DNA of 64,000 nt from Muricoccus pecuniae (GTDB lineage: Bacteria; Pseudomonadota; Alphaproteobacteria; Acetobacterales; Acetobacteraceae), in contig NZ_JACIJD010000008.1 in assembly GCF_014199205.1 (NCBI RefSeq), positions 124,001-188,000 of the forward strand, given 5' to 3'. Below are positions 19,373 to 42,199 of the stretch, in pieces. Position 1 is the stretch's first letter, and the number at the start of each line of letters is the position of its first letter. Below the pieces are notes generated by a model that saw nothing but the letters and a program-made list of their open reading frames with translations, ran no database searches and had not been told where the DNA came from. The position numbers and the translations under genes were made by a program.

Positions 19373-20170
19373 ATGGGGCGAGAGGCGGGGGGACCTGGGT
19401 TGAGGGCCATCATACTTTGTGCTGGCCAGGGGCGGCGCCTGTTGCCGCTCACGGAACATGCCCCGAAATGCCTGCTCCGCGTGGCCGGGCATCCGATTCT
19501 GGAATGGCAGCTCCGGGGGCTCGCGGCGGCCGGCATCCGCCACGTCACCCTCGTCACGGGCTTCGAGGCGGAGGCGCTGGAGGGGGCCGTCCCGGGCATC
19601 GCGCCGCCGGGCATGGTGGTCGAGACCCTCTACAATCCCTTCTTCGCGGTGGCCGAGAACATCGGCAGCTGCTTTCTCGTCCGCGACCTCATCGCGGAGG
19701 GGGACACGGTGCTGCTGAACGGCGACACGCTCTTCGAGCCGGCGGTGCTGAAGCGCCTCCTCGCCTCCCCGCACGCGCCCATCACCGTCACCATCGACCG
19801 CAAGGCGGCCTATGACGCCGACGACATGAAGGTTTCGCTCGACGGCACGCGGCTGACGGCCATCGGCAAGACCCTCCTTCCCGGCGAGACCGACGGGGAG
19901 TCGATCGGCATGCTCCTGTTCCGCGGCCACGGTGGAAGAGTCTTCGCGGCCGGGCTGGAGGCCGCGCTGCGCCAGCCAGACGGGCTGCGGCGCTGGTATC
20001 TCTCGGTCATCCACACCCTCGCCCGCACCGGCGCCGTGCAGGTGGCCTCCATCGAGGGGCTGAGCTGGGGCGAGGTGGACTACCCCGCCGACCTCGCCCG
20101 CGCCGAGGCCCTCGTCCGCTCCTGGGAAGGCGCCGGCCCGGCCCTGGCCGCGGCGGTGGGGGAGCGCTGA
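19373..20170 (+). CDS. phosphocholine cytidylyltransferase-like nucleotidyltransferase
   Basis: About 265 residues with a GT-A nucleotidyltransferase fold. The nucleotide loop is AIILCAGQGRRLLPLTEHAP with PKCLLRVAG; YNPFFAVAENIGS and LNGDTLFEP resemble LicC-like phosphocholine or sugar-phosphate cytidylyltransferases; EVDYPADLARAE is the usual C-terminal signature. A TTG at 19400, closer to the conserved core, could be the real start. It overlaps the next gene by one base, so it heads the ceramide-gene cluster and may activate a headgroup or sugar with CTP. The substrate is not determined. Confidence 0.72.
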   Translation: MGREAGGPGLRAIILCAGQGRRLLPLTEHAPKCLLRVAGHPILEWQLRGLAAAGIRHVTLVTGFEAEALEGAVPGIAPPGMVVETLYNPFFAVAENIGSCFLVRDLIAEGDTVLLNGDTLFEPAVLKRLLASPHAPITVTIDRKAAYDADDMKVSLDGTRLTAIGKTLLPGETDGESIGMLLFRGHGGRVFAAGLEAALRQPDGLRRWYLSVIHTLARTGAVQVASIEGLSWGEVDYPADLARAEALVRSWEGAGPALAAAVGER

Positions 20171-21927
20171 TGGCGCCCCCGCCCCTCCCGACGCGCAGCA
20201 ACCTGCCCCAGCGCCTCGGGGACTTCGCGAACCTCGCGGAAGCGCTGGAATACGCCGCGGGCGGCGAGACCGGCCTCTCCTTCCACGACGGCCGGGGCGC
20301 GGTGACCTGCGCCCTGCCCTACCGCCAGCTCCGGGAGGAGGCGCTCGACCTCGCCGGCCGGCTGCTCCATGCCGGGCTGCGGCGGGGGGAGCGGGTGGCG
20401 ATCGTCGCCGAGACGCATCCCGAGGTGGTCGCCGCTTTCCTCGCCTGCCAGCATGCGGGCCTGGTCCCCGCGCTCCTGCCCGTGCCGGCGGCCTTCGGCG
20501 GGCGGGAGGGCTATATCGACCATATCCGCCGCCTGGCCGTGGCGGCGCGGGCCTCGGCGCTCTTCGTGCCGGAGTCCCTCAAGCCCTGGCTGGCCCCCGT
20601 CGCCCAGGAGATGGGGCTGAAGGCCTTCGGGCGCCCCTCCTCCCTGCCCCCGGCGCCGGAGGGACTGCCCGCGCCGCAGCCGCTGGGGCAGGAGGACATC
20701 GCCTATCTCCAGTTCTCCTCGGGCAGCACGCGCTTCCCCGTGGGTGTCGCCGTTACCGGCCGCGCGCTGATGGAGAACCTCCGCGCCATCCTGCGCCACG
20801 GGCTGCGCGTCACGCCGGATGACCGGGCGGTGTCCTGGCTGCCGCTCTATCACGACATGGGCCTCGTCGGCTTCCTCCTGGCACCGATGGCGGGGCAGGT
20901 GGCGCTCGACCTCCTCTCGCCCCAGGAATTCGCGCGCCGCCCGCAGCTCTGGCTCCGCCTGCTCTCGGCCAACCGGGGCACGCTCTCCTACAGCCCGAGC
21001 TTCGGCTACGAGCTCTGCGTCCGGCGCGGCCGACCCGACCCGGCCAAGGGCCCGCCTCTCGACCTCTCCTCCTGGCGCGCGGCGGGGATCGGGGGGGACA
21101 TGATCCGCCCGCATGTCCTCGCCCGCTTCGCGGAGACCTTCCTGCCGGACGGCTTCAGGCCCGGGGCCTTCGTGCCGAGCTACGGCATGGCGGAGGCGAC
21201 GCTGGCCATCAGCTTCGCGCCTCCCGGCGCCGGGGTGGCGGTGGACACGGTCGATCTCGACCGGCTGGAGAGCGAGGGCTTTGCCGCTCCGCCCGCGGCC
21301 GGGGGCGGGCGCGTCCGCGGCTTCGCCCTCTGCGGCCCACCGCTTCCCGGCACTGAGGTGGAGATCCGGGACCCCGACGGCGCCGCCCTGCCGGAGCGGC
21401 GCGTCGGCCGCATCCTCGTCCGCGGCCCCGGGCTGATGAGCGGCTATGACGGCCGCCCGGAGGAGAGCGCCGCCGCCCTCTCGCCCGACGGATGGCTCGA
21501 GACGGGCGATCTCGGCTACCGGCTCGGCGGGCAGATCGTGATCACCGGGCGCGCGAAGGACCTCATCATCGTCAACGGCCGGAATCTCTGGCCGCAGGAC
21601 CTCGAATGGTCGGTGGAGCAGGCCGTCTCCGGCCTCCGCAGCGGCGATGCCGCCGCCTTCGCCGTGGAGGAGGAAGGGACGGAGCGCGTCGTGGTGCTGA
21701 TCGAGGCCCGCGGCGCGCCGGACGAGGCCGGGCGGGAAAGGCTCGCGGCCGAGGCGGCGGGCACGCTCCGCGCGCGGCACGGGGTGGAGGCGCTGATCGT
21801 GCTCGTGCCGCCGGGGAGCCTGCCGCACACCTCCTCGGGCAAGCTCAGCCGGGCGCTGGCCCGCAGCCGCTACCTCAAGGGGGCCTTCGCCCGGCCCGCC
21901 GCCGAGCTCGCCGCCCTCACGCGATGA
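20170..21927 (+). CDS. fatty-acyl-AMP ligase / acyl-ACP synthetase (AasR-like)
   Basis: Adenylate-forming enzyme of 585 residues. The ATP loop is FSSGSTRFPVGVAVTG; WLPLYHDMGLVGFLLAP and FVPSYGMAEATLAISF are typical of fatty-acyl-AMP ligases that load acyl carrier proteins; ETGDLGY and the C-terminal TSSGKLSRA with catalytic lysine are intact. It is coupled to the following CerR-like gene by ATGA. In Caulobacter an acyl-ACP synthetase (AasR) is one of the five genes needed for ceramide synthesis, so the likely role is to load fatty acid onto the ACP at 28040. The exact acceptor is inferred. Confidence 0.8.
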   Translation: MAPPPLPTRSNLPQRLGDFANLAEALEYAAGGETGLSFHDGRGAVTCALPYRQLREEALDLAGRLLHAGLRRGERVAIVAETHPEVVAAFLACQHAGLVPALLPVPAAFGGREGYIDHIRRLAVAARASALFVPESLKPWLAPVAQEMGLKAFGRPSSLPPAPEGLPAPQPLGQEDIAYLQFSSGSTRFPVGVAVTGRALMENLRAILRHGLRVTPDDRAVSWLPLYHDMGLVGFLLAPMAGQVALDLLSPQEFARRPQLWLRLLSANRGTLSYSPSFGYELCVRRGRPDPAKGPPLDLSSWRAAGIGGDMIRPHVLARFAETFLPDGFRPGAFVPSYGMAEATLAISFAPPGAGVAVDTVDLDRLESEGFAAPPAAGGGRVRGFALCGPPLPGTEVEIRDPDGAALPERRVGRILVRGPGLMSGYDGRPEESAAALSPDGWLETGDLGYRLGGQIVITGRAKDLIIVNGRNLWPQDLEWSVEQAVSGLRSGDAAAFAVEEEGTERVVVLIEARGAPDEAGRERLAAEAAGTLRARHGVEALIVLVPPGSLPHTSSGKLSRALARSRYLKGAFARPAAELAALTR

Positions 21928-22907
21928 AGGGGGCCGCCATGGCGGGGGCGCCGCTCGTCGCCGTCACCGGAGGCACCGGCTTCCTCGGCCGCCACGCCGT
22001 CGCGGCGCTCACCCGCCAGGGGTGGCGGGTGCGGATGCTCCTGCGGGATGGGGGCGGCACGGCGGAGGGCCTGCCCGCGGCCGAGACAGTCCGCGGCGAC
22101 CTCGGGGATGCGGAGGCGCTGCGGCGGCTGGTGGCCGGCGTGGATGCCGTGGTCCATCTCGCCGGGCTGACCAAGGCGCGCCGCGAGGCGGACTTCCTCG
22201 CGGTCAACCGGGACGGGAGCGCGCGGCTGGCCGCCGCCGTCGCCGCCGCGGCCCCGGGCGCGCGCCTCGTCCTCGTCTCCTCCCTCGCCGCCCGGGAGCC
22301 GGGCATTTCCCCCTATGCCGCCAGCAAGCGGGCGGGAGAAGAAGCGGCGGTGGCGGCGCTGGGCGGGGCGGGTTCCCCGGTGGTGCTGCGGCCCGGGGTC
22401 ATCTACGGCCCGGGCGACCGGGAGGGGCTGGTCCTGTGCCGCCTCGCCCTCTCCCCGCTCGTTCCCGTGCCCCGCGCGCCGGAGCCGCGGATCGGCCTCG
22501 TCCATGCCGAGGACGTGTCGGGCGCCATCGCTGCCCTCCTCCGCGGCGGGCCGGAGGGCGCTGCCTTCGAGGTCACCGACGCCAGGGCAGAGGGCTATGG
22601 CTGGCGCGAGATCATCGAGGGGGTGGCGGGGGCGCTCGGGCGCCGGCCGCGCTTCCTGCCCGTGCCGGACGCCGCCATGCTCGCGGCCGGCGCCGCGGCC
22701 GATGCCCTGTCCCGCCTCTCCGGCCGGCCCGCCCTGTTCGGGCGCGGCAAGGCGCGGGAGATCCTGCACCGGGACTGGGGCTCATCCCGGGAACGGCAGC
22801 TCCCTCCCGGCCTCTGGTCGCCGGGGGTCTCGCTGGAGGCCGGGTTGCGCGACACGCGCCGCTGGTGGGCAGATCTCGGCCTGCCAGGAGCCGCCGCCCA
22901 TGGCTAG
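21924..22907 (+). CDS. NAD(P)-dependent epimerase/reductase, CerR-like
   Basis: Extended short-chain dehydrogenase of 327 residues. The nucleotide motif VTGGTGFLGRHA is at the N-terminus, the active-site YAASKRAGEE matches YxxxK with the upstream SSL, and LRPGVIYGPGDR follows. Caulobacter CerR, proposed to reduce the 3-oxo group of the ceramide precursor, belongs to this family, and the position beside an acyl-ACP synthetase supports that role; other epimerase functions cannot be excluded. ATG 21924 overlaps the previous stop (ATGA); ATG 21939, with AAGGGGG upstream, is an alternative start. Confidence 0.75.
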   Translation: MKGAAMAGAPLVAVTGGTGFLGRHAVAALTRQGWRVRMLLRDGGGTAEGLPAAETVRGDLGDAEALRRLVAGVDAVVHLAGLTKARREADFLAVNRDGSARLAAAVAAAAPGARLVLVSSLAAREPGISPYAASKRAGEEAAVAALGGAGSPVVLRPGVIYGPGDREGLVLCRLALSPLVPVPRAPEPRIGLVHAEDVSGAIAALLRGGPEGAAFEVTDARAEGYGWREIIEGVAGALGRRPRFLPVPDAAMLAAGAAADALSRLSGRPALFGRGKAREILHRDWGSSRERQLPPGLWSPGVSLEAGLRDTRRWWADLGLPGAAAHG

Positions 22908-22918
22908 GGCCGCCGCCG

Positions 22919-23377
22919 TCAGGGCCGGATGGGCTCCTGCCGCACCGCCTCGTAGCGGCGGAGGCAGCTGCTGTTGGCGCCGCCCTCCCGCGACACGGCC
23001 GGGACGGCGGCATCCGCCGCGACCAGGCTGTCGCCCTCGATGCGCCCCGTGGCGAAGCGGGTGGCGAGGTCGGAGACCAGGGCCAGCTCGCCGCCCGGCG
23101 AGACCGTGCCCGTGAGCAGCGCCTCCTTCACGGCGGAGCGGTGGTGGCGCGAGCCGCGCAGCTCCACCGACCCGTTCTCCACGCGGAACCAGACCTCCCG
23201 CGCCGCCTCCCGGCAGGACGCGGCGGGCCCGACCGGGATGCGGCGGCCGCGATACCATCCATCGAAGCGCGAGGCCGCGCCGGAGGGGGCCGGCACGGCT
23301 CCCCCATCGGCGCATCCCGCCAGTCCAGCCCCGAGCAACAGGGCGAGCGCCGCCGCGCGAGCCCCCCGTAACGTCAC
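22919..23377 (-). CDS. small predicted lipoprotein
   Basis: 152 residues with a lipoprotein signal: ALALLLGAGLAGC places the lipobox cysteine at about residue 22. The mature part contains GWYRGRRIP and a short beta-rich region (WFRVENGSVELRG) but no recognised domain. The best start is GTG 23377, without a good ribosome-binding site. This leaves only 12 bases to the divergent gene at 23390, so promoters of one or both must lie inside the other gene. Function unknown. Confidence 0.6.
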   Translation of the reverse strand: MTLRGARAAALALLLGAGLAGCADGGAVPAPSGAASRFDGWYRGRRIPVGPAASCREAAREVWFRVENGSVELRGSRHHRSAVKEALLTGTVSPGGELALVSDLATRFATGRIEGDSLVAADAAVPAVSREGGANSSCLRRYEAVRQEPIRP

Positions 23378-23389
23378 AGGACGAGAGCG

Positions 23390-24328
23390 ATGAGCCAGGC
23401 CCCCGCCGCCACGGACCGCCCCGTGGTGTTCATCCACACCAATGCCAAGCAGCGCCTGGGCGCGCTCGTCTCGGCCCATTCCTTCCGGCGCAACGCGCGC
23501 GACGCCGACTCCTTCGAGGTCCGGCTGCTGGAAGCCGAAAAATGCCCGCCCCTGCTCGCGGCCGAGGGGCGGAGCTTCCAGCGCGCCGGGCACGGCCGGG
23601 TCTGGCACATGGACGACCTGCAATCCTTCACCCCGCTGCGCTTCGCCGTGCCCGATGCCATGGGGCATCGCGGCCTCGGCCTGGTCGTGGACCCCGACGT
23701 CTTCGCCGTGGGCGATGTCGGCGAGTTGTTCTCCCGGGACCGGCATGGCAAGGCGATCCTTTGCCGCGCCCGCCCCGGGCATAACGGCGCGCCGGACTAC
23801 CTGGCCAGCAGCGTGATGCTACTGGACTGCGCCCTGCTGCCCCACTGGCGCTTCGAGGAAACGCTGGAGGAGCTGTTCAGCGGCCGGCTGGACTACGTGG
23901 AACTGATCGAGCTCCGGCGCGAGAGGCGCGAGACGATCGGCCTGCTGGAGCCCGTCTGGAACGACTTCGACCGGCTCACCCCGGAGACGCGGCTGCTCCA
24001 CACTACCAAGCGCCGCACCCAGCCCTGGAAGACCGGCCTTCCTGTGGACTTCACCCTGCGCGAGCGCGGCTTCGGCCCGATCCCGGCCGTGCTCGTCCGC
24101 CCCGTGCTGCGCTTCTGGACCGCCCATGCCCGCTACCGCCCGCATCCCGACCCAGGGCAGGAGGCGTATTTCTTCGCGCTCCTGGCGGAGTGCCTGGACA
24201 CTGGCGCCGTGACGCGCGCGGAGGTGGAGCACGGGATCAGGGAGCGGCACATCCGCCCCGACGCGCTGGAGATGGCGGAGCGCTGCCGCGGCCGCTTCCC
24301 GCCGCCCCGCCAGCCAGTAGCCGCCTGA
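23390..24328 (+). CDS. GT8-like glycosyltransferase (putative)
   Basis: 312 residues. The central segment GLVVDPDVFAVGDVGELF resembles the metal-binding DxD strand of family 8 glycosyltransferases (aspartates near residue 105), and HTTKRRTQPWKT resembles their late substrate loop. There is no signal peptide, so it is cytosolic. It is flanked by ceramide and glycan genes and could glycosylate a lipid. The last 92 bases overlap the converging ELM1-like gene. Confidence 0.55.
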   Translation: MSQAPAATDRPVVFIHTNAKQRLGALVSAHSFRRNARDADSFEVRLLEAEKCPPLLAAEGRSFQRAGHGRVWHMDDLQSFTPLRFAVPDAMGHRGLGLVVDPDVFAVGDVGELFSRDRHGKAILCRARPGHNGAPDYLASSVMLLDCALLPHWRFEETLEELFSGRLDYVELIELRRERRETIGLLEPVWNDFDRLTPETRLLHTTKRRTQPWKTGLPVDFTLRERGFGPIPAVLVRPVLRFWTAHARYRPHPDPGQEAYFFALLAECLDTGAVTRAEVEHGIRERHIRPDALEMAERCRGRFPPPRQPVAA

Positions 24329-25418
24329 CGCGCGCGGCCGCCTCCCCGGCGATGTCCGGCGGGATGCCCCGCCTCGGCGCCTCCACCGTGCCCGCGAGCC
24401 CGTGATGGTCGATCTCCCGCCAGAAGAACCAGAGGTCGCGCGGCCATCCGGCCAGGCCGCGCCGGACGAGCGCGCCCCAGGCCCGGCCCGCGAGGCGCGC
24501 GGGGAGAGAGGCGCCGTCCTCCCCCGCATCGGCCCGGCGCAGGGTGCGCATCACCCGCAGCAGCGCCGCCCCTACCCCCCCGGCCCGGACGGGCACGAGG
24601 CCGACGGGCTTCCCCGTCGCGACGGCCTCCGAGATCATCGCCGCGCTGTCCGCCGTCACGGCGATCTCCGCCGAGAGGGCGAGCAGGCCGGGATAGGGGT
24701 TCCCTTCCCCGCTCCCAGTGAGGAGGGCGGCAGGCCCCTCCGCCCCGGCGAGGATCGCCCGCACCCGCCGTTCCACTGCCTCGGGCGTCCGGCGGCTGGC
24801 CACTGCCAGCACGCTGCCGCCCCCCGCCGCCGCGCGGGCGAGCAGCACGCGGCAGGCCGCCTCCGCATCCTCGGGGCGCAGCCGCCAGGGCGGGGAATTG
24901 CCGCCGAGGAGAAGGGCGAGGCGCGGCTCCGGGAAGGGCCGGAGGCGTTCCCGCCAGAGTTCCCCCGCCTCGGCCAGCCGCGCCGGCCCCATCGCGGAGA
25001 GGGAGACGGGCGCCTCGATCACCTCCGGGCCGGGCGGCACGCCGTACTGGGGCGTGGTCACCACGAGGTCGAGCAGCGCGGGGTGGCAGCGCGGGCGGCC
25101 GATCCCCACGATGCGCGTCCGGCCGCCGGAGCGCGCCCGGATCCAGCGCGCGGCCGGCACGGCCCGCCTCCCGACGGTGATGACGACATCCGGCCAGGGC
25201 GGGACGAGACGGGCGCGGGAGGCGGCATCGAGGCTTGCCAGCCCGCTCCAGCCGAAGCGGTTGGGCAGCAGGCGGAGGGGATTTTGGCGGAGCGGGATCG
25301 GCTCGACCCGGCCGCCCAGCGCCGCGGCCAGGGCGAGCACCTGGTTGTTGTCGCCGGTGCGCGGTCCGAGCAGCGCCCAGACGCGCAGCGGCCCGCCGGG
25401 GCTGGTCCCTGTGTCCAA
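24237..25418 (-). CDS. ELM1/DUF1022-like protein
   Basis: About 393 residues of the family often labelled mitochondrial fission protein ELM1, a GT-B-like group of unknown activity in bacteria. Visible features: LLGPRTGDNNQVLALAAALG near the N-terminus, NRFGWSGLASLD, LLLGGNSPPWRL and VTADSAAMISEAVATGKPV, the last resembling a nucleotide-sugar-binding C-domain. No ATG is available; TTG 25418, with GGAGAGG upstream, is the best start. The last 30 residues are poorly conserved in character and overlap the GT8-like gene on the other strand. Confidence 0.7.
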   Translation of the reverse strand: MDTGTSPGGPLRVWALLGPRTGDNNQVLALAAALGGRVEPIPLRQNPLRLLPNRFGWSGLASLDAASRARLVPPWPDVVITVGRRAVPAARWIRARSGGRTRIVGIGRPRCHPALLDLVVTTPQYGVPPGPEVIEAPVSLSAMGPARLAEAGELWRERLRPFPEPRLALLLGGNSPPWRLRPEDAEAACRVLLARAAAGGGSVLAVASRRTPEAVERRVRAILAGAEGPAALLTGSGEGNPYPGLLALSAEIAVTADSAAMISEAVATGKPVGLVPVRAGGVGAALLRVMRTLRRADAGEDGASLPARLAGRAWGALVRRGLAGWPRDLWFFWREIDHHGLAGTVEAPRRGIPPDIAGEAAARVRRLLAGGAAGSGRGSAPPSPARRGGCAAP

Positions 25419-25489
25419 GCGGCTGCGGCCTCTCCGGGGCGGGAAAGGATGCGGGGGCGCCCCGCGCCGGGCAAGGGGGGCCGGGCCGG

Positions 25490-26626
25490 ATGCGGATAAG
25501 CTACGTCGCGGGCACCGCCCTGCCCTCCCGCGTCGCGAGCGCGGTGAACGTGATGGGCATGTGCCGCGCCCTGGCCGCCGCGGGGCACGAGGTGACGCTC
25601 TACGCCCGGGGCCGCCGGGGGGACGAGGCGGCCGTCTTCGCCGCCTTCGGGATGGAGCCGCTCTTCGACCTCGTGCTGCTCGCCCCGCCCCGCCTGCCCC
25701 TGGGGAAGAACCTTCTCTACCCCGCCCTCGTCGCGCGGGAGATGCGCGCGCGGCCGGTGCCGGAGCTGATCTACGGCCGCCACGCCTATGCCATGGGCCT
25801 CGTGGGGCCCCTCGTCGCGGCGCCGGTCGCCTATGAGGTGCATGCCCTCCCGCTCCGGCGGGCCCGGCGGCTGGCGGAGTCCTGGCTCCTGCGCCAGCCG
25901 CGCTTCGCCCTGCTCGTCGCCATTTCCAACGCCCTGGCAGAGGACTACGCGGCCGCGATGCCGGCCCTCGGCGGGCGGCCCGTGCTGGTGGCGCATGACG
26001 GGGCGGACCCCGCGCCCGATCCCCTGCCAGCGCTGCCGCCCGGCCCCTGGCCCGGCCGCCCCGGTGCCCCGCAGCTCGGCTATGTCGGCCATCTCTATCC
26101 CGGCAAGGGGATGGAGACCGTAGCGGCCCTTGCCGAAGCCCTGCCGGAATGCGAGTTGCACGCGATCGGCGGGACGGAGCGCGACCTGGCCTCCTGGCGC
26201 GCGCGCCTCGCCGGGCGGGCGAACCTGCACCTGCACGGGCACGTGCCGCACGCCCTCGTGCCCGGCCTGCTCGCGCGCTTCGACCTGCTCCTCGCCCCGC
26301 CCGCGCCGCGCGTCCTCTCCTCGGCGGGGCGCGAGATCGGGCGCTGGATGTCCCCGCTGAAGGTGTTCGAGTACATGGCCGCCGGAAAGCCGATCCTCGC
26401 CTCCGACATCCCTGCCCTGCGGGAGATCCTGCGGGACGGCGAGACGGCGCTGCTCCTCCCGCCCGGTGACACCGCTGCCTGGGCGGCGGCGGCGCGGGGC
26501 CTGCTCGCCGACCGGGAGCGGGCCGCCGCCCTCGGCGCCGCGGCAAGGGCGGAGCTGCTGGGCACCTTCACCTGGGACGCCCGCGCCGCGCGGATCCTCC
26601 GCCGGATCGCGGAACTCCGGGGATGA
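25490..26626 (+). CDS. GT4-family glycosyltransferase
   Basis: GT-B fold glycosyltransferase of 378 residues. The N-domain begins MRISYVAGTALPSRVASAVN; the C-domain shows LGYVGHLYPGKGMET and the donor-binding MSPLKVFEYMAAGKPILASD with the EX7E-like SPLKVFEYMA...REIL pattern. ATG 25490 has AAGGGGGG upstream. Its stop overlaps the flippase start (ATGA), so sugar transfer and export are probably linked. Donor and acceptor unknown. Confidence 0.85.
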   Translation: MRISYVAGTALPSRVASAVNVMGMCRALAAAGHEVTLYARGRRGDEAAVFAAFGMEPLFDLVLLAPPRLPLGKNLLYPALVAREMRARPVPELIYGRHAYAMGLVGPLVAAPVAYEVHALPLRRARRLAESWLLRQPRFALLVAISNALAEDYAAAMPALGGRPVLVAHDGADPAPDPLPALPPGPWPGRPGAPQLGYVGHLYPGKGMETVAALAEALPECELHAIGGTERDLASWRARLAGRANLHLHGHVPHALVPGLLARFDLLLAPPAPRVLSSAGREIGRWMSPLKVFEYMAAGKPILASDIPALREILRDGETALLLPPGDTAAWAAAARGLLADRERAAALGAAARAELLGTFTWDARAARILRRIAELRG

Positions 26627-28291: not shown

Positions 28292-28294
28292 ATC

Positions 28295-29503: not shown

Positions 29504-29507
29504 GGGC

Positions 29508-32544: not shown

Positions 32545-32586
32545 GGCTGGCGCGGAGGCCTCGGACGGGCGAGATTGCGCCGCCCC

Positions 32587-33525: not shown

Positions 33526-33992
33526 TAGCGCAGCCGGATCGCCATGCGCCTTCCCTCTGCCGGCACGGTGAAGCGCACATCGGCGAAGTCGGGCAGGCCC
33601 ACCGTGGTCGGGGCGTCGTTGGAGAAGCCGTAGCCCTCGGCGGGCATGCCGATCAGGTTGCGGTTGAAGTCGTGGTCGTCGTTCTCGTCGTGATAGACGG
33701 CGATGGCATAGTCGCCGGCGGCGGAGAGGGCGAAGCAGGCCTCGGCCGAGGCCGCCCGCAGCGGGATCCGCTGCCGCGAGAGATAGGCTCGCCGCGCGAG
33801 GAAGGCTTCCGGCCGCGGGCCGTAGACGGTGACGGTGACATTGCCCGCGACGCGCCGCGCGCCGGTCACCTCCACCCGGAGCCTCGGCCCGGCCGGGGCT
33901 TCGGCCGAGGCGCAGGGCGCCACGCGGGGGTCCTGCGCCCGCGCCTGCCCCTGCGGGAGAAGGGCTCCGAGCAACCCCGCCAGGGCCGCCAC
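33522..33992 (-). CDS. DUF2141-type secreted protein
   Basis: About 156 residues. The mature part matches DUF2141: VTVTVYGPRPEAF, YAIAVYHDENDDHDFNRN (acidic, EF-hand-like) and GMPAEGYGFSNDAPTTVG. A hydrophobic stretch ending GQARAQ looks like a signal peptide, but its basic n-region (RRLRL) lies upstream of the only nearby start, GTG 33992. The next in-frame start is GTG 34115, which gives a 41-residue longer product reaching almost to the divergent HIT gene. The start is therefore uncertain. Function unknown. Confidence 0.65.
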   Translation of the reverse strand: MAALAGLLGALLPQGQARAQDPRVAPCASAEAPAGPRLRVEVTGARRVAGNVTVTVYGPRPEAFLARRAYLSRQRIPLRAASAEACFALSAAGDYAIAVYHDENDDHDFNRNLIGMPAEGYGFSNDAPTTVGLPDFADVRFTVPAEGRRMAIRLRY

Positions 33993-34134: not shown

Positions 34135-34578
34135 ATGCCAGCCGCAACGCTCGCCAAATTCGGCCATCCCACCACGCTGGTCGGGGAGACGGAGCACTGG
34201 ACCGTGCTGCTGCGACCGCAGCAGGTGACGCTCGGCTCGCTCGTCCTCGTCTGCCGCGAGGAGGTCACGCGATTCGGCGAGGCCAGCCCCGCCGCCTTCG
34301 CCGACCTGCACCGCGCCGTGTCCCGCATCGAGCCGATCCTGAGGGAATTCGTCGCCTGTGAGAAGATCAACCACCTCATGCTGATGATGGTGGACCCCGA
34401 CGTCCACTTCCACGTCATCCCCCGCTACGAGGGGCTGCGGACCCATCTCGGGCAGGGCTTCCCCGATGCCGGCTGGCCCGGCCCGCCCGCCCTGGCGCAG
34501 GCGGTGGAGCCGGAGGCGGCGGTGCGGGACGATCTGCTTGCGCGGCTGCGCGCGGCCTGGACAGCCACCGGGGCGTGA
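34135..34578 (+). CDS. HIT-family protein
   Basis: 147 residues with the histidine-triad core VHFHVIPRY near residue 91. The family hydrolyses or transfers nucleotide phosphates (AMP-lysine, Ap4A, nucleotide sugars). ATG 34135 has AGGA seven bases upstream. It is the first gene of a plus-strand run and its stop overlaps the LptF-like start (GTGA), linking a nucleotide-cleaving enzyme to lipid-export genes. Confidence 0.82.
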   Translation: MPAATLAKFGHPTTLVGETEHWTVLLRPQQVTLGSLVLVCREEVTRFGEASPAAFADLHRAVSRIEPILREFVACEKINHLMLMMVDPDVHFHVIPRYEGLRTHLGQGFPDAGWPGPPALAQAVEPEAAVRDDLLARLRAAWTATGA

Positions 34579-35810
34579 GCACGGACCCCATCGCCCCGGC
34601 CTACCGGGGGTTGCCGGCCGCGGGCGGGCTGGTGAGCCGCTACATGCTGCGGCTGCTGGCGCGGCCGCTCGCGGCCACCCTCCTCCTCGTCCTGCCGGCG
34701 CTGCTGCTGGAGCGGCTGCTGCGGCTGTTCGACCTCCTGGCGGGGGCGGGCAGCCCCGCCTCCTCCATCCTCCAGCTCCTGCTCTACCTCGTGCCCCATT
34801 ACCTCGGCCTGGCGGTCCCGGCGGCGCTGTTCCTCGCGGTCTATGTCGTCATCGCCAGGCTGAGCCAGGACCACGAGCTGGACGCGCTCCAGGCATCGGG
34901 CATCTCGCTCGCGCGGCTCGGGCGGCCCTTCCTCGCCGTCGGGCTCGTCTGCGCCGCGCTCGGCATCGGCCTCTACGGCTATGCCCAGCCCCTCAGCCGC
35001 TACGCCTATCGCGCGGCCTATCACGCTCTCACCAATGCGGGCTGGAACGCGAGCCTCGTTCCCGGGGAGTTCGCCCGGGCCGGGCGGCGCTTCACCGTCT
35101 CCGTTGATCGCCGGGAGCCCGGGAGCGGGCTCCTGCACGGCATCACCATCCACCAGCGGCTGGAGGGGGGCGGGGAGGTGCTGACCACCGCCGCCACGGG
35201 CCGCATGCTCTTCAGCAGCGAGGAGAGCGAGCTGCTGATCGAGCTGGAGGACGGCCAGCAGATCACCATCCGCCCCGATGGCGAGGTCTCAACCCTCGCC
35301 TTCTCCAGCTCCGCCCAGTCGCGCCCCTTCGTCCGGCGCCTCCCGATCTTCCGCCTGCGCGGGGGCGACGAGCGGGAGATGACGCTCGGGGAACTCTGGG
35401 CCTCGCGGGATGAGGACGAGCCGCCGGTGGAGCGGCGCCGGATGGATGGAGAGCTGCACGGCCGGCTCGTGCGCGCGGCCTCGCTGCTCGTCCTGCCCCT
35501 GCTGGCGATGCCGATGGGGCTGGCGGCGAAGCGGTCCAGCCGCTCGGTCGCCATCCTTCTCGGGGCGGTGATCCTGGTGGTCTACCAGCAGGCGCTGCAG
35601 CTCGCGGAATCGCTCGGCGATGTCGGGCGGATCGACCCGCGGCCGGCGCTCTGGGGCATGTTCATCCTCTTCTCCATCTTCGCGGCCCTCGTCTTCCGGC
35701 ACAGCAACCGCCACCCGGAGGAGGGCGCCTTCGACGGGCTGCTCGCCCGGCTGGACGCGGCGGCCGGTGCCCTCGCCGCCCTGCTGCCGCGGCGGGGGAC
35801 GGCGCCGTGA
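34575..35810 (+). CDS. lptF: LptF/YjgP-family permease
   Basis: 411 residues with the LptF/LptG arrangement: N-terminal helices (YMLRLLARPLAATLLLVLPA and following), a central periplasmic beta-jellyroll segment (about residues 155-275, including TAATGRMLFSSEESELLIEL) and three C-terminal helices. LptF and LptG form the membrane part of the ABC machine that drives LPS to the outer membrane. Start is GTG overlapping the HIT stop, and the stop overlaps LptG in the same way. No lptD, lptC or lptB is adjacent, unlike the usual lptF-lptG-lptD order, so it may be a paralogue for another lipid. Confidence 0.85.
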   Translation: MSTDPIAPAYRGLPAAGGLVSRYMLRLLARPLAATLLLVLPALLLERLLRLFDLLAGAGSPASSILQLLLYLVPHYLGLAVPAALFLAVYVVIARLSQDHELDALQASGISLARLGRPFLAVGLVCAALGIGLYGYAQPLSRYAYRAAYHALTNAGWNASLVPGEFARAGRRFTVSVDRREPGSGLLHGITIHQRLEGGGEVLTTAATGRMLFSSEESELLIELEDGQQITIRPDGEVSTLAFSSSAQSRPFVRRLPIFRLRGGDEREMTLGELWASRDEDEPPVERRRMDGELHGRLVRAASLLVLPLLAMPMGLAAKRSSRSVAILLGAVILVVYQQALQLAESLGDVGRIDPRPALWGMFILFSIFAALVFRHSNRHPEEGAFDGLLARLDAAAGALAALLPRRGTAP

Positions 35811-36871
35811 ACGGCGTGCTCGGCCGCTACCTCACCCGCCTCTTCGTCGCCCGCGCGCTCGCCGTCCTGCTCGGGCTGGCCGCGCTGCTCCAACTCCTCG
35901 ACCTCCTGGACAAGGCGAGCGACGTGCTCTCGCGCGGCGGGCTGGCCGATATCGGGCGCTACGCCATGCTGCGGCTGCCGACCACCCTCGGCCGGCTGAT
36001 GCCACTCGCCGTGCTGGTCGGCGCCATCCTCGCCTTCCGCCAGCTCGCCGCCTCGCTGGAAGTCACGGCGATGCGGACGGCGGGGATCGGCACCTGGCGC
36101 ATCCTCGGCGCCCTCGCCCCCGCCTGCGCCCTCGCCTTCCTGCTGCAATCCGCCCTCCTCCTCGGCGTCGCGCCGCGGACCGAGCGGGCGTTGGCGGACT
36201 GGTGGGACAGCCGCGACCCGGCGGAGCGGCCCCTCGTCCTGCCCCAGCGGCTCTGGCTGCGGAACGGCACGGAGATCGTGGCGGCCGACGCCGTCTCGCG
36301 CGACGGCGGGGTGCTGGAGGGCCTGCTGGTGATCCGGCGGGACACGGAGGGCCGCGCGCTGGACCGGCTGGACGCGCGCCGAGCCGCGCACGGGGCCGAG
36401 GGCTGGCGGCTGGAGGGGGTGCGCCTCATCCGCCCCGGCGCGAGCCGGCCGCAGGAGATGGCAGCCCTGCCCTGGCCCGAGGGCCCGGCCCCGCGCGCCC
36501 TGCGCGAGCTGGCCCGCCCCACCGAGGCGCAGTCCCCGGCCCGCCTGCTCGCGGGGTGGCGCGGGGAGGGCCCGGTCTCCCGCGGGCCCGCCTTCTACGC
36601 GGCGCGGCTGCACGCCCTGGCCGCCTCGGCCGCCGCGCCCTTCGTGATGCTCCTGCTCGCCGCCCCCGCCGCCTTCGGCCTGCCGCGGCAGGAGGGCGCC
36701 TTTCGTCGCGCGGCCGTTGGACTCGTGCTCGGCCTCGGCTATCTCGTGGCCGCCGGGCTGATGGCGTCGATCGGCGAGGCGGGCGGGCTGCATCCGGTGG
36801 CGGCCGCCTGGGCCACGCCGGTCCTCTTCGCCATGGCCGGGCTGCTCCTCCTCTGGCGGGAGGAGGGCTGA
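35807..36871 (+). CDS. lptG: LptG/YjgQ-family permease
   Basis: 354 residues, partner of the preceding LptF-like protein. Helices begin GRYLTRLFVARALAVLLGLA; LRLPTTLGRLMPLAVLVGAI and the short motif VTAMRTAGI (the coupling-helix region, EVTAMRTAG) match the family; three helices close the protein. GTG start in a GTGA overlap. The next gene follows after 17 bases on the same strand. Confidence 0.85.
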   Translation: MNGVLGRYLTRLFVARALAVLLGLAALLQLLDLLDKASDVLSRGGLADIGRYAMLRLPTTLGRLMPLAVLVGAILAFRQLAASLEVTAMRTAGIGTWRILGALAPACALAFLLQSALLLGVAPRTERALADWWDSRDPAERPLVLPQRLWLRNGTEIVAADAVSRDGGVLEGLLVIRRDTEGRALDRLDARRAAHGAEGWRLEGVRLIRPGASRPQEMAALPWPEGPAPRALRELARPTEAQSPARLLAGWRGEGPVSRGPAFYAARLHALAASAAAPFVMLLLAAPAAFGLPRQEGAFRRAAVGLVLGLGYLVAAGLMASIGEAGGLHPVAAAWATPVLFAMAGLLLLWREEG

Positions 36872-36888
36872 GAGAGGGAGTGAGCGCG

Positions 36889-37650
36889 ATGTACGGTCCC
36901 TGGCGGGGCGGGCGGAGCTTCGATCTCGGGCGGATGACGCTGCGGGAACTCGTGGTCGCCTATGCCGCCCATCCCGCGATCCATCTCTACGCCGTGCTGG
37001 CGGTGGTCAGCACCGTCCTCGCGGTGCTCTGGGGAGAGGGCGCCGGGTTCCGACCGCTGCTCGCGGTGCTCGCCACCGCCCTCGCCTATCCCCTGGCCTG
37101 GTACCTCATCCACCGCTTCGTCCTGCACTCCCGCTTCCTCTACCGCTCGCCCCTCACGGCCGCGCTCTGGAAGCGGATCCATTTCGACCACCACCAGGAC
37201 CCGCACCGGCTGGACGTGCTCTTCGGCGCCCCGGTGACGACACTGCCGACGATCCTCGCGATCCTCATCCCCCTCGGCTGGTTCGTGGGCGGCGGGCGCG
37301 CGGGCGCGGCGGCGGCCGTGGCCGCGGGGCTCGTCATCACCTGCATCTACGAGTTCTGCCACTGCATCCAGCACCTCAACTTTAAGCCGCGCAGCCGGCT
37401 GCTGCGCCGGATGAAGGAGCTGCACCTCGCCCACCACTTCCACCACGAGGGCGGCAATTTCGGGATCACGAGCTACCTGATCGACCGCGGCTTCGGCACC
37501 TACTACGCCGAGGCGCGGGAGCGGCCGCGCAGCCCGCACGCCTTCAACCTCGGCTATGACCGCGCCGAGGCGGAGCGCTTCCCCTGGGTCGCCCGGCTGA
37601 CCGGCGCGCCGCCGCGCGACCGCCCCGCCCGCCCGGGCGAGAAGGCGTGA
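36889..37650 (+). CDS. fatty acid hydroxylase-superfamily enzyme
   Basis: 253-residue membrane di-iron enzyme of the sterol desaturase/fatty-acid-hydroxylase group. The histidine clusters are visible: HRFVLHSR, HFDHHQDPHR, HCIQHLNF and HLAHHFHHEG, set among four hydrophobic segments. ATG 36889 has AGGGAG eight bases upstream; GTG 36880 is an in-frame alternative. The stop overlaps the ceramide-synthase gene start (GTGA), so a hydroxyl group on the ceramide acyl chain or long-chain base is the most likely product. Confidence 0.82.
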   Translation: MYGPWRGGRSFDLGRMTLRELVVAYAAHPAIHLYAVLAVVSTVLAVLWGEGAGFRPLLAVLATALAYPLAWYLIHRFVLHSRFLYRSPLTAALWKRIHFDHHQDPHRLDVLFGAPVTTLPTILAILIPLGWFVGGGRAGAAAAVAAGLVITCIYEFCHCIQHLNFKPRSRLLRRMKELHLAHHFHHEGGNFGITSYLIDRGFGTYYAEARERPRSPHAFNLGYDRAEAERFPWVARLTGAPPRDRPARPGEKA

Positions 37651-38807
37651 CCCCGCGGGCGGCGGCGAGCCAGCCCATCGAGGTCGAGTTGGTCGGGGGC
37701 CGCGCCGCCCTCGACCGCTTCATCCGCCTGCCCAACACGCTGAACAGCGCCGATCCCGCCTGGGTCCCGCCGCTCGCCATGGAGCGGCGCGGCGCGCTCT
37801 CGCCCCGGAGCAATCCCTGGTTCCGCCACGGCGAGGCCGCCTTCTGGATCGCGCGCCGGGGCGGGCGCGACGTCGGGCGGATCAGCGCGCAGGAGGACCG
37901 TCTGGCACCGGCGGTGGAGGGGCAGCGCCCCGCCTATTTCGGCCTGCTCGCGGCCGAGGACGACCGGGAGGTCTTCGCCGCCCTGCTCGGCACCGCCGAG
38001 GCCTGGGCGGCCTCGCGCGGGCTGCGGCTGGTCCAGGGTCCCTTCAGCCTCTCCATCAACGAGCAGACCGGCCTGCTCGTCTCGGGCTTCGACACGCCGC
38101 CCATGCTGATGATGCCGCACGACCCCCCCTATGCCGGGCCGCATCTGGAGGCGCTCGGCTACCGCAAGGCGCGCGACCTGCTCGCCTATGTCTGCGAACC
38201 CGACGTGCCGCTGCCCCCGGCCGCCGCCCGCGCCATCGCGCGCGGCCTGCCCGCGGGCGTCACGCTGCGCCCGCTGCGCCGGAGGGAATTGCGGGCGGAG
38301 GTCGACCTGCTGATCGACATCTTCAACGAGGCCTGGGCAGGCAACTGGGGCTTCGTGCCCTTCACGCCGGAGGAGGTGGCGCATCTCGCCTCCGAGCTGC
38401 GGCCCCTGCTCCACGAGCGCCTGGTCTGGTTCGCCGAGATGAGGGGCCGCGCGGTGGGCTTCGGCGTCTGCCTGCCCAACCTGAACGAGGCCATCCGGGA
38501 CCTCTCCGGCCGGCTGCTGCCCTTCGGCTGGGCGCGGCTGCTCTGGCGGCTGAAGGTGAAGGGCGTCTCCACCGCGCGCGTGCCGCTGATGGGGTTCCGG
38601 CGGGAGATCGGCGCGGGGATGCTCGGCCGCGTCCTCCCGATCTTCCTCATCGAGGCGCTGCGGCGCGAGGCGCTGGCGCTCGGTTTCAAGCGGATCGAGA
38701 TGTCCTGGGTGCTGGAGGACAATCTCCGCATGCGCCACATCGCCGAGGCCTTCGGCGCCCGCGCCTACAAGACCTACCGCGTCTACGAGAAGGCGCTTCC
38801 GGCATGA
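37647..38807 (+). CDS. bcerS: bacterial ceramide synthase (GNAT-like)
   Basis: 386 residues of the GNAT-fold family that includes Caulobacter bCerS, which N-acylates the sphingoid base. Recognisable family blocks: LPNTLNSADPAWVPPLA at the N-terminus, GPFSLSINEQTGLLVSGFDT, MMPHDPPYAGPHLEALGY and the C-terminal KRIEMSWVLEDNLRMRHIAE. No membrane helix is obvious. GTG start coupled to the hydroxylase stop; its stop overlaps the next gene (ATGA). Recognition is from memory of the family and should be checked by alignment. Confidence 0.78.
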   Translation: MTPRAAASQPIEVELVGGRAALDRFIRLPNTLNSADPAWVPPLAMERRGALSPRSNPWFRHGEAAFWIARRGGRDVGRISAQEDRLAPAVEGQRPAYFGLLAAEDDREVFAALLGTAEAWAASRGLRLVQGPFSLSINEQTGLLVSGFDTPPMLMMPHDPPYAGPHLEALGYRKARDLLAYVCEPDVPLPPAAARAIARGLPAGVTLRPLRRRELRAEVDLLIDIFNEAWAGNWGFVPFTPEEVAHLASELRPLLHERLVWFAEMRGRAVGFGVCLPNLNEAIRDLSGRLLPFGWARLLWRLKVKGVSTARVPLMGFRREIGAGMLGRVLPIFLIEALRREALALGFKRIEMSWVLEDNLRMRHIAEAFGARAYKTYRVYEKALPA

Positions 38808-39619
38808 GGCCGGGCCTGGCGGAGGGCGTGACGGCGCTGGTCCTCGCGGGGCAGCGGCGCGGGACGGACCCGATGGCCGCCGCCGCCGGCCTCTCCCACA
38901 AGGCGCTGCTGCCGGTCGCCGGGGTGCCCATGCTGCTGCGCGTGGTCGCGGCGCTGCGGGGCTCGCCCGGGATCGGGCGGATCGTCGTCTCCGTCGAAGC
39001 GTCGGGGACGACGCTGCGCGGCCTGGAAGGACTGGATGGGGTGATCCTCCGAGAGGCCGCCCCGAGCCCCGCGCGCAGCGCCGCCGCCGCTTTCGGGGAG
39101 TTCGGCGCCCCAATGCTGGTGACCACCGCCGACCACGCGCTGCTGACGCCCGCGATGGTGGGCCACTTCCTTGCCGCCGCCCCGGCCGGCGCGGCGGCCA
39201 TCGCGGGACTTGCCCGGCGGGAGACGGTGCTGGGCGAGTTCCCGGGCACGCGGCGGACCTGGCTGCGCTTCCGCGACGGCGATTTCAGCGGCTGCAACCT
39301 CTTCCTCCTCGCCACCCCGGAGGCCGCGGGCGCGCTCCGTTTCTGGCAGGATCTGGAGGGGCGGCGGAAGCGGCCGCTGGCCATGGCCTGGATGATCGGC
39401 CCGGCGACCCTCCTCCGCCACGCCCTGGGACGGCTGACCCTGCGCGGCGCGCTGGACGCGCTGGAGGTCCGCTGCGGCGCGCGCCTCGCCACCGTGGACA
39501 TGCCCTTCGGCGCGGCCGCGGTGGACGTGGACAAGCCGGAGGACCTGCGGCTCGTCGAGGAACGGCTGCGCGGCGAGCCGGCCGGGCTTGAGGGATCGGC
39601 GCCCTCCCTCACATCCTGA
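38804..39619 (+). CDS. MobA/GlmU-like nucleotidyltransferase
   Basis: 271 residues with a GT-A nucleotidyltransferase start (ALVLAGQRRGTDPMA, HKALLPVAGVPMLLRV), the central aspartate pair VTTADHALL and a late FGAAAVDVDKPEDL that resembles the metal-binding segment of sugar-nucleotide or CDP-alcohol synthases. It is translationally coupled to the ceramide synthase. It could supply the activated headgroup used by the phosphotransferase whose own N-terminal domain lacks the nucleotide loop. Substrate unknown. Confidence 0.7.
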   Translation: MRPGLAEGVTALVLAGQRRGTDPMAAAAGLSHKALLPVAGVPMLLRVVAALRGSPGIGRIVVSVEASGTTLRGLEGLDGVILREAAPSPARSAAAAFGEFGAPMLVTTADHALLTPAMVGHFLAAAPAGAAAIAGLARRETVLGEFPGTRRTWLRFRDGDFSGCNLFLLATPEAAGALRFWQDLEGRRKRPLAMAWMIGPATLLRHALGRLTLRGALDALEVRCGARLATVDMPFGAAAVDVDKPEDLRLVEERLRGEPAGLEGSAPSLTS

Positions 39620-39663
39620 CGGACCGGTCCTGGCGCGACCGGAGCAGCGGAGACGGAGCACGC

Positions 39664-40950: not shown

Positions 40951-40963
40951 GGGGGCGCGCCGG

Positions 40964-42199
40964 TCAGCCCGTGGCGGCGCGCAGGCGGCGCTCCATCTCC
41001 GCGATCCCCGCGCCGTCCACATTGGCGAAGGCGATGCGGAGATGCGTGCTCTCCCCCGCGAAGGCGGGGCCGGGCAGGCACATCAGCCCGTGCTGCCGGG
41101 CGAGCCGCTCCACCACCTCCCAGGCCGGGGTCGCGCCGAAGGGGTGGCGGACATAGGCGAAATAGGCGCCGAGGGAATCCAGCCGCCAGCCCGGCAGCCG
41201 TGAGAAGGCCGCCCGCACCGCCCGCGCGCGCCCCACCATCTCCGCCCGGTTCGCCGCGCGCCATTCCGCCAGGTGGCCGAGGCCCCAGCTCAGCGCCACC
41301 TGCCCCGCCCGCGCGGCGCAGATCTGCACGCAGTCCATCACCTTGCCGAGTTCCGGCATCAGCGCCGGCGGCGCGCCGATCGCCCCGAGCCGGTAGCCCG
41401 GCACCGCGAAGGACTTGGAGAAGCTGTAGAGCTGGACGAGGTTCTCCGGCCATGCCTCGCCCGAGAGGAGGTCGTGCGCGCGGTCCTGCCCCTCAGGCAG
41501 GAAGTCGCGATAGGTCTCGTCGAGGACGAGCCAGATCCCGCGCTCCCGGCACAGGGCGTGGAAGCGCGCGATCACCTCGGGCGAGAGGATCGCGCCCGTC
41601 GGGTTGTTGGGGGTGACGAGCACGATCGCCCTCACCCGCCCGTCGATCAGCGCCGCCGCCTCCTCGGGATCGGGCACGAAGCCCCGCTCCGGGCGGCAGG
41701 GCAGCGCGCGCGCCTCGATCCCCAGCATGGAGAGCGTCATCTGGTGGTTGAAGTACCAGGGCGTGGGCAGCAGCACCGCGTCCCCGCGCCCGGCCAGCGC
41801 CATCATGGCGACGAAATAGGCCTGGTTGCAGCCGGCGGTGATCGCCACCTCCGCCGCCCGGCGCGGCCCGCCATAGACGCTCCCGAGCTCCGCGGCATAG
41901 GCCTCGCGCAGCGCCGCCTCACCCATGATGGGGCCGTAGCCGGCCGTGGCCGGGCTCCCCGCGGCCAGGGAGAGCTGCTCCAGCATCCCCGGCGCGGGCG
42001 GATGGGCCGGCACGGCCTGGCAGAGGTTGAGCAGCGGCCCCTCCCCGCCCCGGTACTCCGCGCCCCAGGCCTGGATCTCGGGGATGGGCGGGCTGCCGGT
42101 GTCGAGCAGGCGGGGGTTCAAGGCCGGGCTGGAGGGAGCCGCCGGGCGGGACGGGCGCGTCGCGGCGGGCGGCAAGGGCGCCATGAGAGAGATGTTCAT
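40964..42199 (-). CDS. class I/II aminotransferase
   Basis: 411-residue PLP enzyme. Key segments: TAGCNQAYFVAMMALAGRGD, VTPNNPTGAILSPEV, LVLDETYRDFL, and the PLP lysine in LYSFSKSFAVPGYRLGA (about residue 246); the C-terminal arginine is in HLRIAFANV. Specificity is not evident. It converges on the ATP-grasp gene with a 13-base gap and could provide an amino donor for it, though it may be unrelated. ATG 42199 is used; an ATG six codons later is possible. Confidence 0.85.
   Translation of the reverse strand: MNISLMAPLPPAATRPSRPAAPSSPALNPRLLDTGSPPIPEIQAWGAEYRGGEGPLLNLCQAVPAHPPAPGMLEQLSLAAGSPATAGYGPIMGEAALREAYAAELGSVYGGPRRAAEVAITAGCNQAYFVAMMALAGRGDAVLLPTPWYFNHQMTLSMLGIEARALPCRPERGFVPDPEEAAALIDGRVRAIVLVTPNNPTGAILSPEVIARFHALCRERGIWLVLDETYRDFLPEGQDRAHDLLSGEAWPENLVQLYSFSKSFAVPGYRLGAIGAPPALMPELGKVMDCVQICAARAGQVALSWGLGHLAEWRAANRAEMVGRARAVRAAFSRLPGWRLDSLGAYFAYVRHPFGATPAWEVVERLARQHGLMCLPGPAFAGESTHLRIAFANVDGAGIAEMERRLRAATG

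What the first reader, a model, noticed from the sequence alone, without database searches (positions are those of the whole stretch)
19373..42199. A large sphingolipid locus containing the full five-gene ceramide set
Seen: homologues of acyl-ACP synthetase (20170), CerR-like reductase (21924), ACP (28040), serine palmitoyltransferase (28295) and the GNAT-like ceramide synthase (37647). Known: these five families are the ceramide-synthesis set of Caulobacter. Inference: here they are spread over about 19 kb between glycan, phospholipid-headgroup and export genes, so the locus could make and export a complete complex sphingolipid.
Basis: partly seen in the sequence, partly recalled or inferred. 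Interest (0 to 1): 0.88.

Follow-up and report, generated by a model that had tools for sequence, protein, structure and literature searches.

The report
Bacterial sphingolipid-making and export gene cluster
A block of about 21 neighbouring genes in a Roseomonas-like bacterium appears to build an acidic, probably hydroxylated sphingolipid and carry it towards the outer membrane; it is a fuller version of a pathway worked out in Caulobacter, and skin Roseomonas carry the same block on a plasmid.

Summary

The locus matches, by domain and mostly by order, the published Caulobacter ceramide-diphosphoglycerate (CPG2) region: CpgC-like protein, ceramide-kinase-like CpgB, CDP-alcohol transferase, phosphoesterase, second LptF/LptG pair, CofC-like and CpgD-like nucleotidyltransferases.

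Differences: a fatty-acid hydroxylase gene directly before cerS, whose only PDB matches are yeast ceramide hydroxylase Scs7; no LptC2 found; and a linked GT8-fold protein with an ELM1-family partner. Of 12 alphaproteobacterial genomes with a full-length match to the GT8-like protein, 12 have Spt, against 3 of 40 chosen genomes without it.

The block is collinear in relatives. In 13 Roseomonas plasmid records, CerS, Spt and CpgC lie on one 320-441 kb plasmid; the one read in full (R. mucosa p1-AD2) carries all 21 genes. Known kind, new variant. No lipid was measured.

The parts
19373..20170 (+). CpgD-like cytidylyltransferase (candidate counterpart of CC_1152)
   Evidence: NTP_transf_3/NTP_transferase; PDB hits include IPCT 4jd0 at E 6.4e-8, which the CpgD paper names as the best fold match of CpgD; best PDB hit is another nucleotidyltransferase, 4y7t
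20170..21927 (+). AasR, specialised acyl-ACP synthetase (FAAL type)
   Evidence: NF006624 777.7 bits, cut-off 600; E. coli homologue 45%
21924..22907 (+). CerR, ceramide reductase (epimerase/dehydrogenase family)
   Evidence: PF01370 E 1.9e-23; E. coli homologue 35%
22919..23377 (-). small putative lipoprotein, conserved with the locus (start inferred)
   Evidence: ORF with LAGC lipobox-like sequence (motif read by eye); homologues in 8 of 37 loci
23390..24328 (+). GT8-fold putative glycosyltransferase with no Pfam match (GTx)
24237..25418 (-). ELM1-family putative glycosyltransferase (start uncertain)
   Evidence: PF06258 E 3.9e-54; R. mucosa homologue annotated ELM1/GtrOC1 family putative glycosyltransferase
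25490..26626 (+). GT4 glycosyltransferase
   Evidence: PF13692 E 7.4e-20
26623..28050 (+). MOP/MurJ-like flippase (candidate counterpart of CC_1166)
   Evidence: MatE/MurJ/Polysacc_synt_3 hits at E 0.0012-0.0021, all below cut-off
28040..28291 (+). AcpR, specialised acyl carrier protein
   Evidence: PP-binding E 3.9e-8; ATG preceded by GGGGAACCGGAG
28295..29503 (+). Spt, serine palmitoyltransferase
   Evidence: NF047599 630 bits, cut-off 500; PDB SPT 2w8j E 1.6e-122
29508..30443 (-). CpgC counterpart (CC_1161), possibly Tam41-like
   Evidence: no Pfam hit; 18-row profile hits Tam41 6ig2 at E 0.016 only; position next to spt as in Caulobacter
30440..31396 (-). CpgB counterpart, ceramide kinase (DAG-kinase family)
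   Evidence: PF00781 E 4.8e-11; GGDGT motif
31393..32544 (-). CpgA counterpart, CDP-alcohol phosphotransferase
   Evidence: PF01066 E 1.2e-11; PDB PIP synthase and other CDP-alcohol transferases
32587..33525 (+). metallophosphoesterase, CC_1158 counterpart
   Evidence: PF00149 E 1.4e-10
33522..33992 (-). DUF2141 protein, likely secreted (start inferred)
   Evidence: PF09912 E 4.2e-27; present in 15 of 37 CpgC loci
34135..34578 (+). HIT-domain protein
   Evidence: PF01230 24 bits, cut-off 21.5
34575..35810 (+). LptF2, second LptF-type permease
   Evidence: PF03739 E 3.7e-66; 206.5 bits, below the NCBIfam LptF cut-off of 230; genome has two pairs
35807..36871 (+). LptG2, second LptG-type permease
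   Evidence: PF03739 E 3.8e-63; 215.8 bits, cut-off 240
36934..37650 (+). fatty acid hydroxylase, candidate ceramide hydroxylase
   Evidence: PF04116 73 bits, cut-off 31; only PDB matches are two Scs7 entries, E 4.5e-9 and 2.4e-8; histidine motifs HRFVLH, HFDHH, HCIQH, HLAHH
37647..38807 (+). CerS, bacterial ceramide synthase (YghO/CC_1154 family)
   Evidence: 45-46% to annotated YghO over 97% of its length
38804..39619 (+). CofC-like nucleotidyltransferase (CC_1153 counterpart)
   Evidence: PF12804 E 1.3e-10; TIGR03552 CofC E 5e-4, 19.7 bits, below cut-off 105

Best explanation
The locus encodes a complete pathway for an anionic phosphosphingolipid of the CPG/CPG2 type. AasR loads a fatty acid on AcpR; Spt condenses it with serine; CerS N-acylates and CerR reduces to ceramide (the order of these two is debated in the literature); the hydroxylase most likely adds a hydroxyl to the ceramide, probably on the amide-linked acyl chain. 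CpgB phosphorylates ceramide; CpgC converts or activates ceramide phosphate towards ceramide phosphoglycerate, perhaps as a Tam41-like cytidylyltransferase; CpgD makes CDP-glycerate, and CpgA with the CofC-like enzyme and the phosphoesterase adds the second phosphoglycerate. The flippase and the second LptF/LptG pair move the lipid towards the outer membrane, possibly sharing LptC with the LPS system. Shown here: gene families, order and conservation. Inferred: every catalytic step, the product, and export.
For: Families. Spt is serine palmitoyltransferase rather than BioF. CerS homologous to YghO; yghO equated with CC_1154 in PMC9386255. The order Spt-CpgC-CpgB-CpgA-phosphoesterase-LptF2-LptG2-CerS-CofC matches CC_1162-CC_1153 as described in PMC11324152, apart from inserted genes. 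Two LptF/LptG pairs in the genome. Block collinear in named Roseomonas loci and on R. mucosa p1-AD2, 21 of 21 genes. An E. coli ceramide block also has an lptF/lptG pair next to spt. The hydroxylase resembles Scs7.
Against: No Caulobacter sequence was in hand, so CpgA-D and CofC assignments rest on domain and order, not on alignment with proven enzymes. CpgC has no Pfam match and only a weak Tam41 hit. CofC, GNAT and flippase hits are below curated cut-offs. The cpgD-like gene is at the other end of the block from its Caulobacter place. One LptC only, on another contig. AcpR gave no tblastn hit in the E. coli block. The hydroxylase is in only 8 of 37 CpgC loci (22 of the 37 have cerS) and is not beside cerS in one of the eight, L080. 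No lipid data.
Confidence: 0.78

Rival explanations
1. The ceramide part is real but the headgroup is different: the CDP-alcohol transferase and the two nucleotidyltransferases attach inositol phosphate or another alcohol phosphate, giving for example inositol phosphoceramide.
For: The CDP-alcohol transferase best resembles archaetidylinositol-phosphate and PI-phosphate synthases, and the CpgD-like protein resembles inositol-phosphate cytidylyltransferase.
Against: The CpgD paper reports the same IPCT resemblance for an enzyme shown to use phosphoglycerate. Gene set and order are those of the CPG2 region.
Confidence: 0.13
2. The product is mainly a glycosphingolipid made by GTx, ELM1 and GT4, and the phospho genes play a minor or conditional part.
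For: Three putative glycosyltransferases lie inside the conserved block; all 12 genomes tested with full-length GTx have Spt.
Against: GTx and ELM1 are in 8 of 37 CpgC loci, kinase and phosphoesterase in 33 and 28; within the 10 kb flanks fetched, the Belnapia and Acidisoma loci lack GTx and ELM1.
Confidence: 0.12
3. The second LptF/LptG pair serves LPS or another lipid and is beside the sphingolipid genes without a functional link.
For: No dedicated LptC2 found; PMC11324152 did not test transport.
Against: LptF2 homologues are in 19 of 37 CpgC loci, and an E. coli ceramide block also has an lptF/lptG pair.
Confidence: 0.12

Closest known systems
Caulobacter crescentus CC_1168-CC_1152 ceramide/CPG2 region (PMC11324152, PMC12275187, PMC10331486)
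   Same: Five ceramide genes; CpgC, CpgB, CpgA and phosphoesterase next to spt; second LptF/LptG; cerS followed by a CofC-like gene; a CpgD-like gene; a flippase-like gene. The paper reports the set in several other proteobacteria.
   Different: Hydroxylase gene overlapping cerS (Caulobacter is reported to use the unlinked CC_0202); cpgD-like gene at the head of the aasR run; no LptC2 found; extra GTx, ELM1, GT4, DUF2141, HIT and lipoprotein genes (some may have Caulobacter counterparts that I could not check).
E. coli yghO-aasR-cerR-acpR-spt block
   Same: Same five ceramide families and an adjacent lptF/lptG pair.
   Different: No CPG headgroup gene or hydroxylase homologue by tblastn in the 17 kb fetched.
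Yeast Scs7 / FA_hydroxylase family
   Same: PF04116 with the histidine motifs; the only PDB matches of the window hydroxylase profile.
   Different: Low similarity (39 bits); only 238 residues, matching Scs7 residues 229-373; substrate untested.

Membership tests
Serine palmitoyltransferase | Scores above a curated SPT model and below the cut-offs of BioF/KBL models | tested here: met
   NF047599 630, cut-off 500; bioF 329, cut-off 426; glycine C-acetyltransferase 300, cut-off 460. It misses two other SPT models (NF047603 448 of 670, NF047600 358 of 640)
Serine palmitoyltransferase | PLP lysine, stacking histidine and aspartate aligned with Sphingomonas SPT | tested here: met
   alignment to 2w8j; residue roles recalled
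CPG2 (Caulobacter-type) phosphosphingolipid locus | Five ceramide genes present together | tested here: met
CPG2 (Caulobacter-type) phosphosphingolipid locus | Kinase, CDP-alcohol transferase, phosphoesterase and two nucleotidyltransferases of the right domain families | tested here: met
   no alignment with Caulobacter proteins; cpgD-like gene in another position
CPG2 (Caulobacter-type) phosphosphingolipid locus | CpgC (CDP-DAG-synthase-like) | tested here: inconclusive
   right position; no Pfam hit; Tam41 at E 0.016
CPG2 (Caulobacter-type) phosphosphingolipid locus | Second LptF and LptG | tested here: met
   two pairs in the genome
CPG2 (Caulobacter-type) phosphosphingolipid locus | Second LptC (CC_1168); a transport feature not shared by all published members | tested here: not met
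   one LptC match, on another contig; a very divergent one could be missed. PMC11324152 says Nitrosomonas, Azotobacter and Pseudomonas luteola lack CC_1168 orthologues and should still form CPG2, so I do not treat it as defining
CPG2 (Caulobacter-type) phosphosphingolipid locus | Product is ceramide (di)phosphoglycerate | not testable with these tools
   needs mass spectrometry
Bacterial ceramide kinase CpgB | DAG-kinase domain with GGDG motif | tested here: met
   PF00781 42.8 bits, cut-off 23.6; GGDGT
Ceramide/fatty acid hydroxylase (PF04116) | Pfam domain above cut-off and full histidine motifs | tested here: met
   73 bits, cut-off 31; motifs; conserved in the 8 aligned
Ceramide/fatty acid hydroxylase (PF04116) | Acts on ceramide | not testable with these tools
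   only synteny with cerS and Scs7 similarity
GT8 glycosyltransferase (for GTx) | GT8 fold | tested here: met

The most novel reading that the evidence does not exclude
The Roseomonas group makes a hydroxylated and glycosylated form of ceramide diphosphoglycerate: a Scs7-like bacterial ceramide hydroxylase encoded in the cerS operon, and an ELM1-GT8 glycosyltransferase pair specific to sphingolipid producers, together build an LPS-like surface lipid carried by a dedicated LptF2/LptG2, and in skin R. mucosa the whole capacity rides on a plasmid.
Probability: 0.3. Interest if true: 0.72.

Novelty: new variant of a known kind. Interest (0 to 1): 0.52.

Why it matters
It puts the biosynthesis, headgroup, hydroxylation and export candidates of a bacterial sphingolipid in one compact block, so each can be deleted in turn. 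[quoted passage not shown] Here its likely sphingolipid genes are found on plasmids (nine R. mucosa records among the 13 Roseomonas ones), with CerS annotated as 'hypothetical protein' or 'dATP pyrophosphohydrolase'. If so, sphingolipid production can be tested by plasmid loss. The hydroxylase and the GT8-like/ELM1 pair are candidate enzymes that are not mentioned in the parts of the Caulobacter papers that I read.

Tried and rejected
Spt as BioF or another oxoamine synthase: rejected. ATP-grasp (39664-40950) and aminotransferase (40964-42199) as pathway members: rejected for the conserved unit; the ATP-grasp scores 83 bits to purD, cut-off 288, and neither follows CofC in L023 or L124. Second LptC: one match in the genome, elsewhere. 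tRNA-Gly at 33915-33989: lies inside the DUF2141 gene, no Rfam match at gathering score in 15000-45000, no tRNA in four related loci; treated as a false call. CerS hits as a marker for this pathway: not safe. Of the 20 divergent family loci fetched I searched 14 for the polyketide synthase, and 6 of these have it beside the CerS-like gene; L038 of G102 is a seventh. A Caulobacter locus for direct comparison: the genome scan returned 37 loci, none named Caulobacter. GTx by sequence profile against the PDB: only a chance-level hit. Foldseek and a second structure prediction (CpgC) were not available. Literature: no paper with both serine palmitoyltransferase and Acetobacteraceae, none with both 'mitochondrial fission ELM1' and sphingolipid, one for the three hydroxylase terms, a fungal review seen in the listing only; Roseomonas with ceramide and Roseomonas mucosa with sphingolipid gave 65 and 27 papers, of which I looked at passages of three. 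Sphingolipid genes in Acetobacteraceae are not new as such: PMC9386255 lists Gluconobacter oxydans genes. The main Roseomonas lipid papers (Myles et al.) are not held, so whether the plasmid location is already in print is unknown.
Full report
What is there. The window is part of contig C8 (124001-188000) of a 4.9 Mb genome. The signal-recognition gene ffh (16245-17630) lies close by, which suggests a chromosomal place here (inference). From 19373 to 39619 I find 21 genes. Limits were set from open frames, codon-position GC and homologues; starts of the lipoprotein, ELM1 and DUF2141 genes are uncertain. Four-base overlaps, as in operons, link CpgA-CpgB-CpgC (minus strand), HIT-LptF2-LptG2, and hydroxylase-CerS-CofC.

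The five ceramide genes. All five are confirmed. Spt scores 630 bits to NCBI's serine palmitoyltransferase model NF047599 (cut-off 500); it misses the cut-offs of two other SPT models. In the PDB, Sphingomonas SPT scores 412 bits, the best 2-amino-3-ketobutyrate ligase 235 and BioF 181. Two of 14 control genomes pass the NF047599 cut-off; the output does not say which. CerS has only a sub-threshold GNAT match, but is 46% identical over its length to a protein annotated YghO in an E. coli block that also holds spt, an ACP, an epimerase and an acyl-AMP ligase. PMC9386255 (passages) equates yghO with Caulobacter CC_1154. The ACP gave no tblastn hit in that block. That E. coli record is labelled a plasmid, but its glc genes suggest a piece of chromosome.

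The headgroup and transport genes. PMC11324152 (parts 1-4 of 9 and the conclusions section read) reports six further genes needed for ceramide phosphoglycerate and diphosphoglycerate: CC_1161 (CDP-DAG-synthase-like), CC_1160 (CpgB), CC_1159 (CDP-alcohol type), CC_1158 (phosphoesterase), CC_1153 (CofC-like) and CC_1152 (nucleotidyltransferase). It lists second LptC, LptF and LptG genes and a flippase, whose part in transport it did not test. The window has a candidate counterpart for each except LptC2, and the run Spt to CofC is in the same order, with DUF2141, HIT and hydroxylase genes in between; the cpgD-like gene lies elsewhere in the block. CpgD was shown to make CDP-glycerate (PMC12275187, first part and passages); CpgB was shown to be a ceramide kinase (PMC10331486, passages). 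The genome holds two LptF/LptG pairs; the window pair falls below NCBI's LptF and LptG cut-offs. One LptC was found, elsewhere. Assignments of CpgA, CpgC, CpgD and CofC rest on domain and order, because no Caulobacter sequence was fetched; CpgC has only a weak Tam41 hit.

Conservation. A scan of genome contigs with a profile of five CpgC proteins returned 37 loci. Homologues of window genes in these 37 (tblastn E 1e-3, over 20% of the query): CpgB 33, phosphoesterase 28, CerS 22, CofC 22, Spt 20, CpgA 19, LptF2 19, LptG2 18, ACP 17, AasR 16, DUF2141 15, CerR 14, flippase 12, HIT 11, hydroxylase 8, GTx 8, ELM1 8, lipoprotein 8, CpgD 7, GT4 6. Many loci end at contig edges or at the 10 kb flank, so these are lower bounds. 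L059, L062 and L063 (Roseomonas harenae, Pararoseomonas indoligenes, R. mucosa) keep the order from AasR to CofC with the hydroxylase; R. populi (L065) keeps it without. A CerS search in 120 genomes of the family found matches in 49. Of nine genomes with CerS at 55-75% identity, all fetched, seven have the hydroxylase beside CerS (not G098, G021).

Hydroxylase. It is PF04116 (73 bits, cut-off 31) with all histidine motifs; a profile of eight finds only yeast Scs7, a ceramide fatty acid hydroxylase, in the PDB (E 4.5e-9). That library may hold few members of this family, so this is modest evidence. The genome has two other PF04116 genes. Caulobacter is reported to hydroxylate its sphingolipids with unlinked CC_0202. 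The window gene starts 62 bases after LptG2 and overlaps CerS by 4 bases. It also lies beside CerS in a genome of another family, f37 (L121).

Plasmids. Twenty-eight plasmid records have a CerS homologue, 13 of them labelled Roseomonas; nine of these are R. mucosa. All 13 also have Spt and CpgC on the same record (one Spt is cut by the record end and one CpgC is in two pieces), and 11 of 13 the hydroxylase. In R. mucosa p1-AD2 all 21 genes are present in the same order, with one extra gene between Spt and CpgC. I read only this one plasmid in full across the block. PMC9808037 (passages) states that R. [quoted passage not shown] The original reports are not held.

Conclusion.

Noticed in passing
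L123 (own genome C1:203001-221000): 6219-17156, minus strand: A second locus with a type I polyketide synthase (2482 aa), an oxoamine synthase 36% identical to the window Spt, a formyltransferase-like gene and a Capsule_synth (PF05159) gene. In L038, L052-L056 and L058 the same synthase pair is followed by a CerS-like gene instead, which suggests an N-acylated, perhaps ceramide-like, capsule lipid; from memory it recalls rkp/wcb capsule genes.
   Followed up: partly
L124 (R. mucosa plasmid p1-AD2, NZ_CP025188.1 56335-97474): The whole sphingolipid block lies on a 416 kb plasmid, with CerS annotated as dATP pyrophosphohydrolase; 13 Roseomonas plasmid records carry CerS, Spt and CpgC together.
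   Followed up: partly
window 33522-33992 (-) and 15 of 37 loci: DUF2141, a likely secreted protein, is in 15 of 37 CpgC loci, all of which also have LptF2 and LptG2; it might be a periplasmic helper of lipid transport.
   Followed up: no
L125 (E. coli strain PN43, NZ_MG591698.1): An lptF/lptG pair is encoded directly beside the yghO-aasR-cerR-acpR-spt block, hinting at dedicated sphingolipid permeases in enterobacteria too. The record is labelled a plasmid but looks like a chromosome piece (glc genes).
   Followed up: no
L042 / L080 (Acetobacteraceae bacterium KSS8): CPG headgroup, LptF2/LptG2 and hydroxylase genes sit beside a divergent oxoamine synthase (36%) and CerS (39%) instead of the usual ones, a mosaic.
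   Followed up: no
window 33915-33989 (-): ARAGORN calls a tRNA-Gly inside the DUF2141 gene; no Rfam match and no tRNA in four related loci, probably a false call.
   Followed up: yes
L063:10818-12431 (-): Extra 537-residue gene between Spt and CpgC in Roseomonas relatives; no Pfam match at E 0.001, though glycosyltransferase family 39 is among the annotations at this place in sister plasmids; absent from the window.
   Followed up: partly
window 39664-40950 (+): ATP-grasp protein distantly related to PurD (83 bits, cut-off 288), not conserved with the locus.
   Followed up: partly
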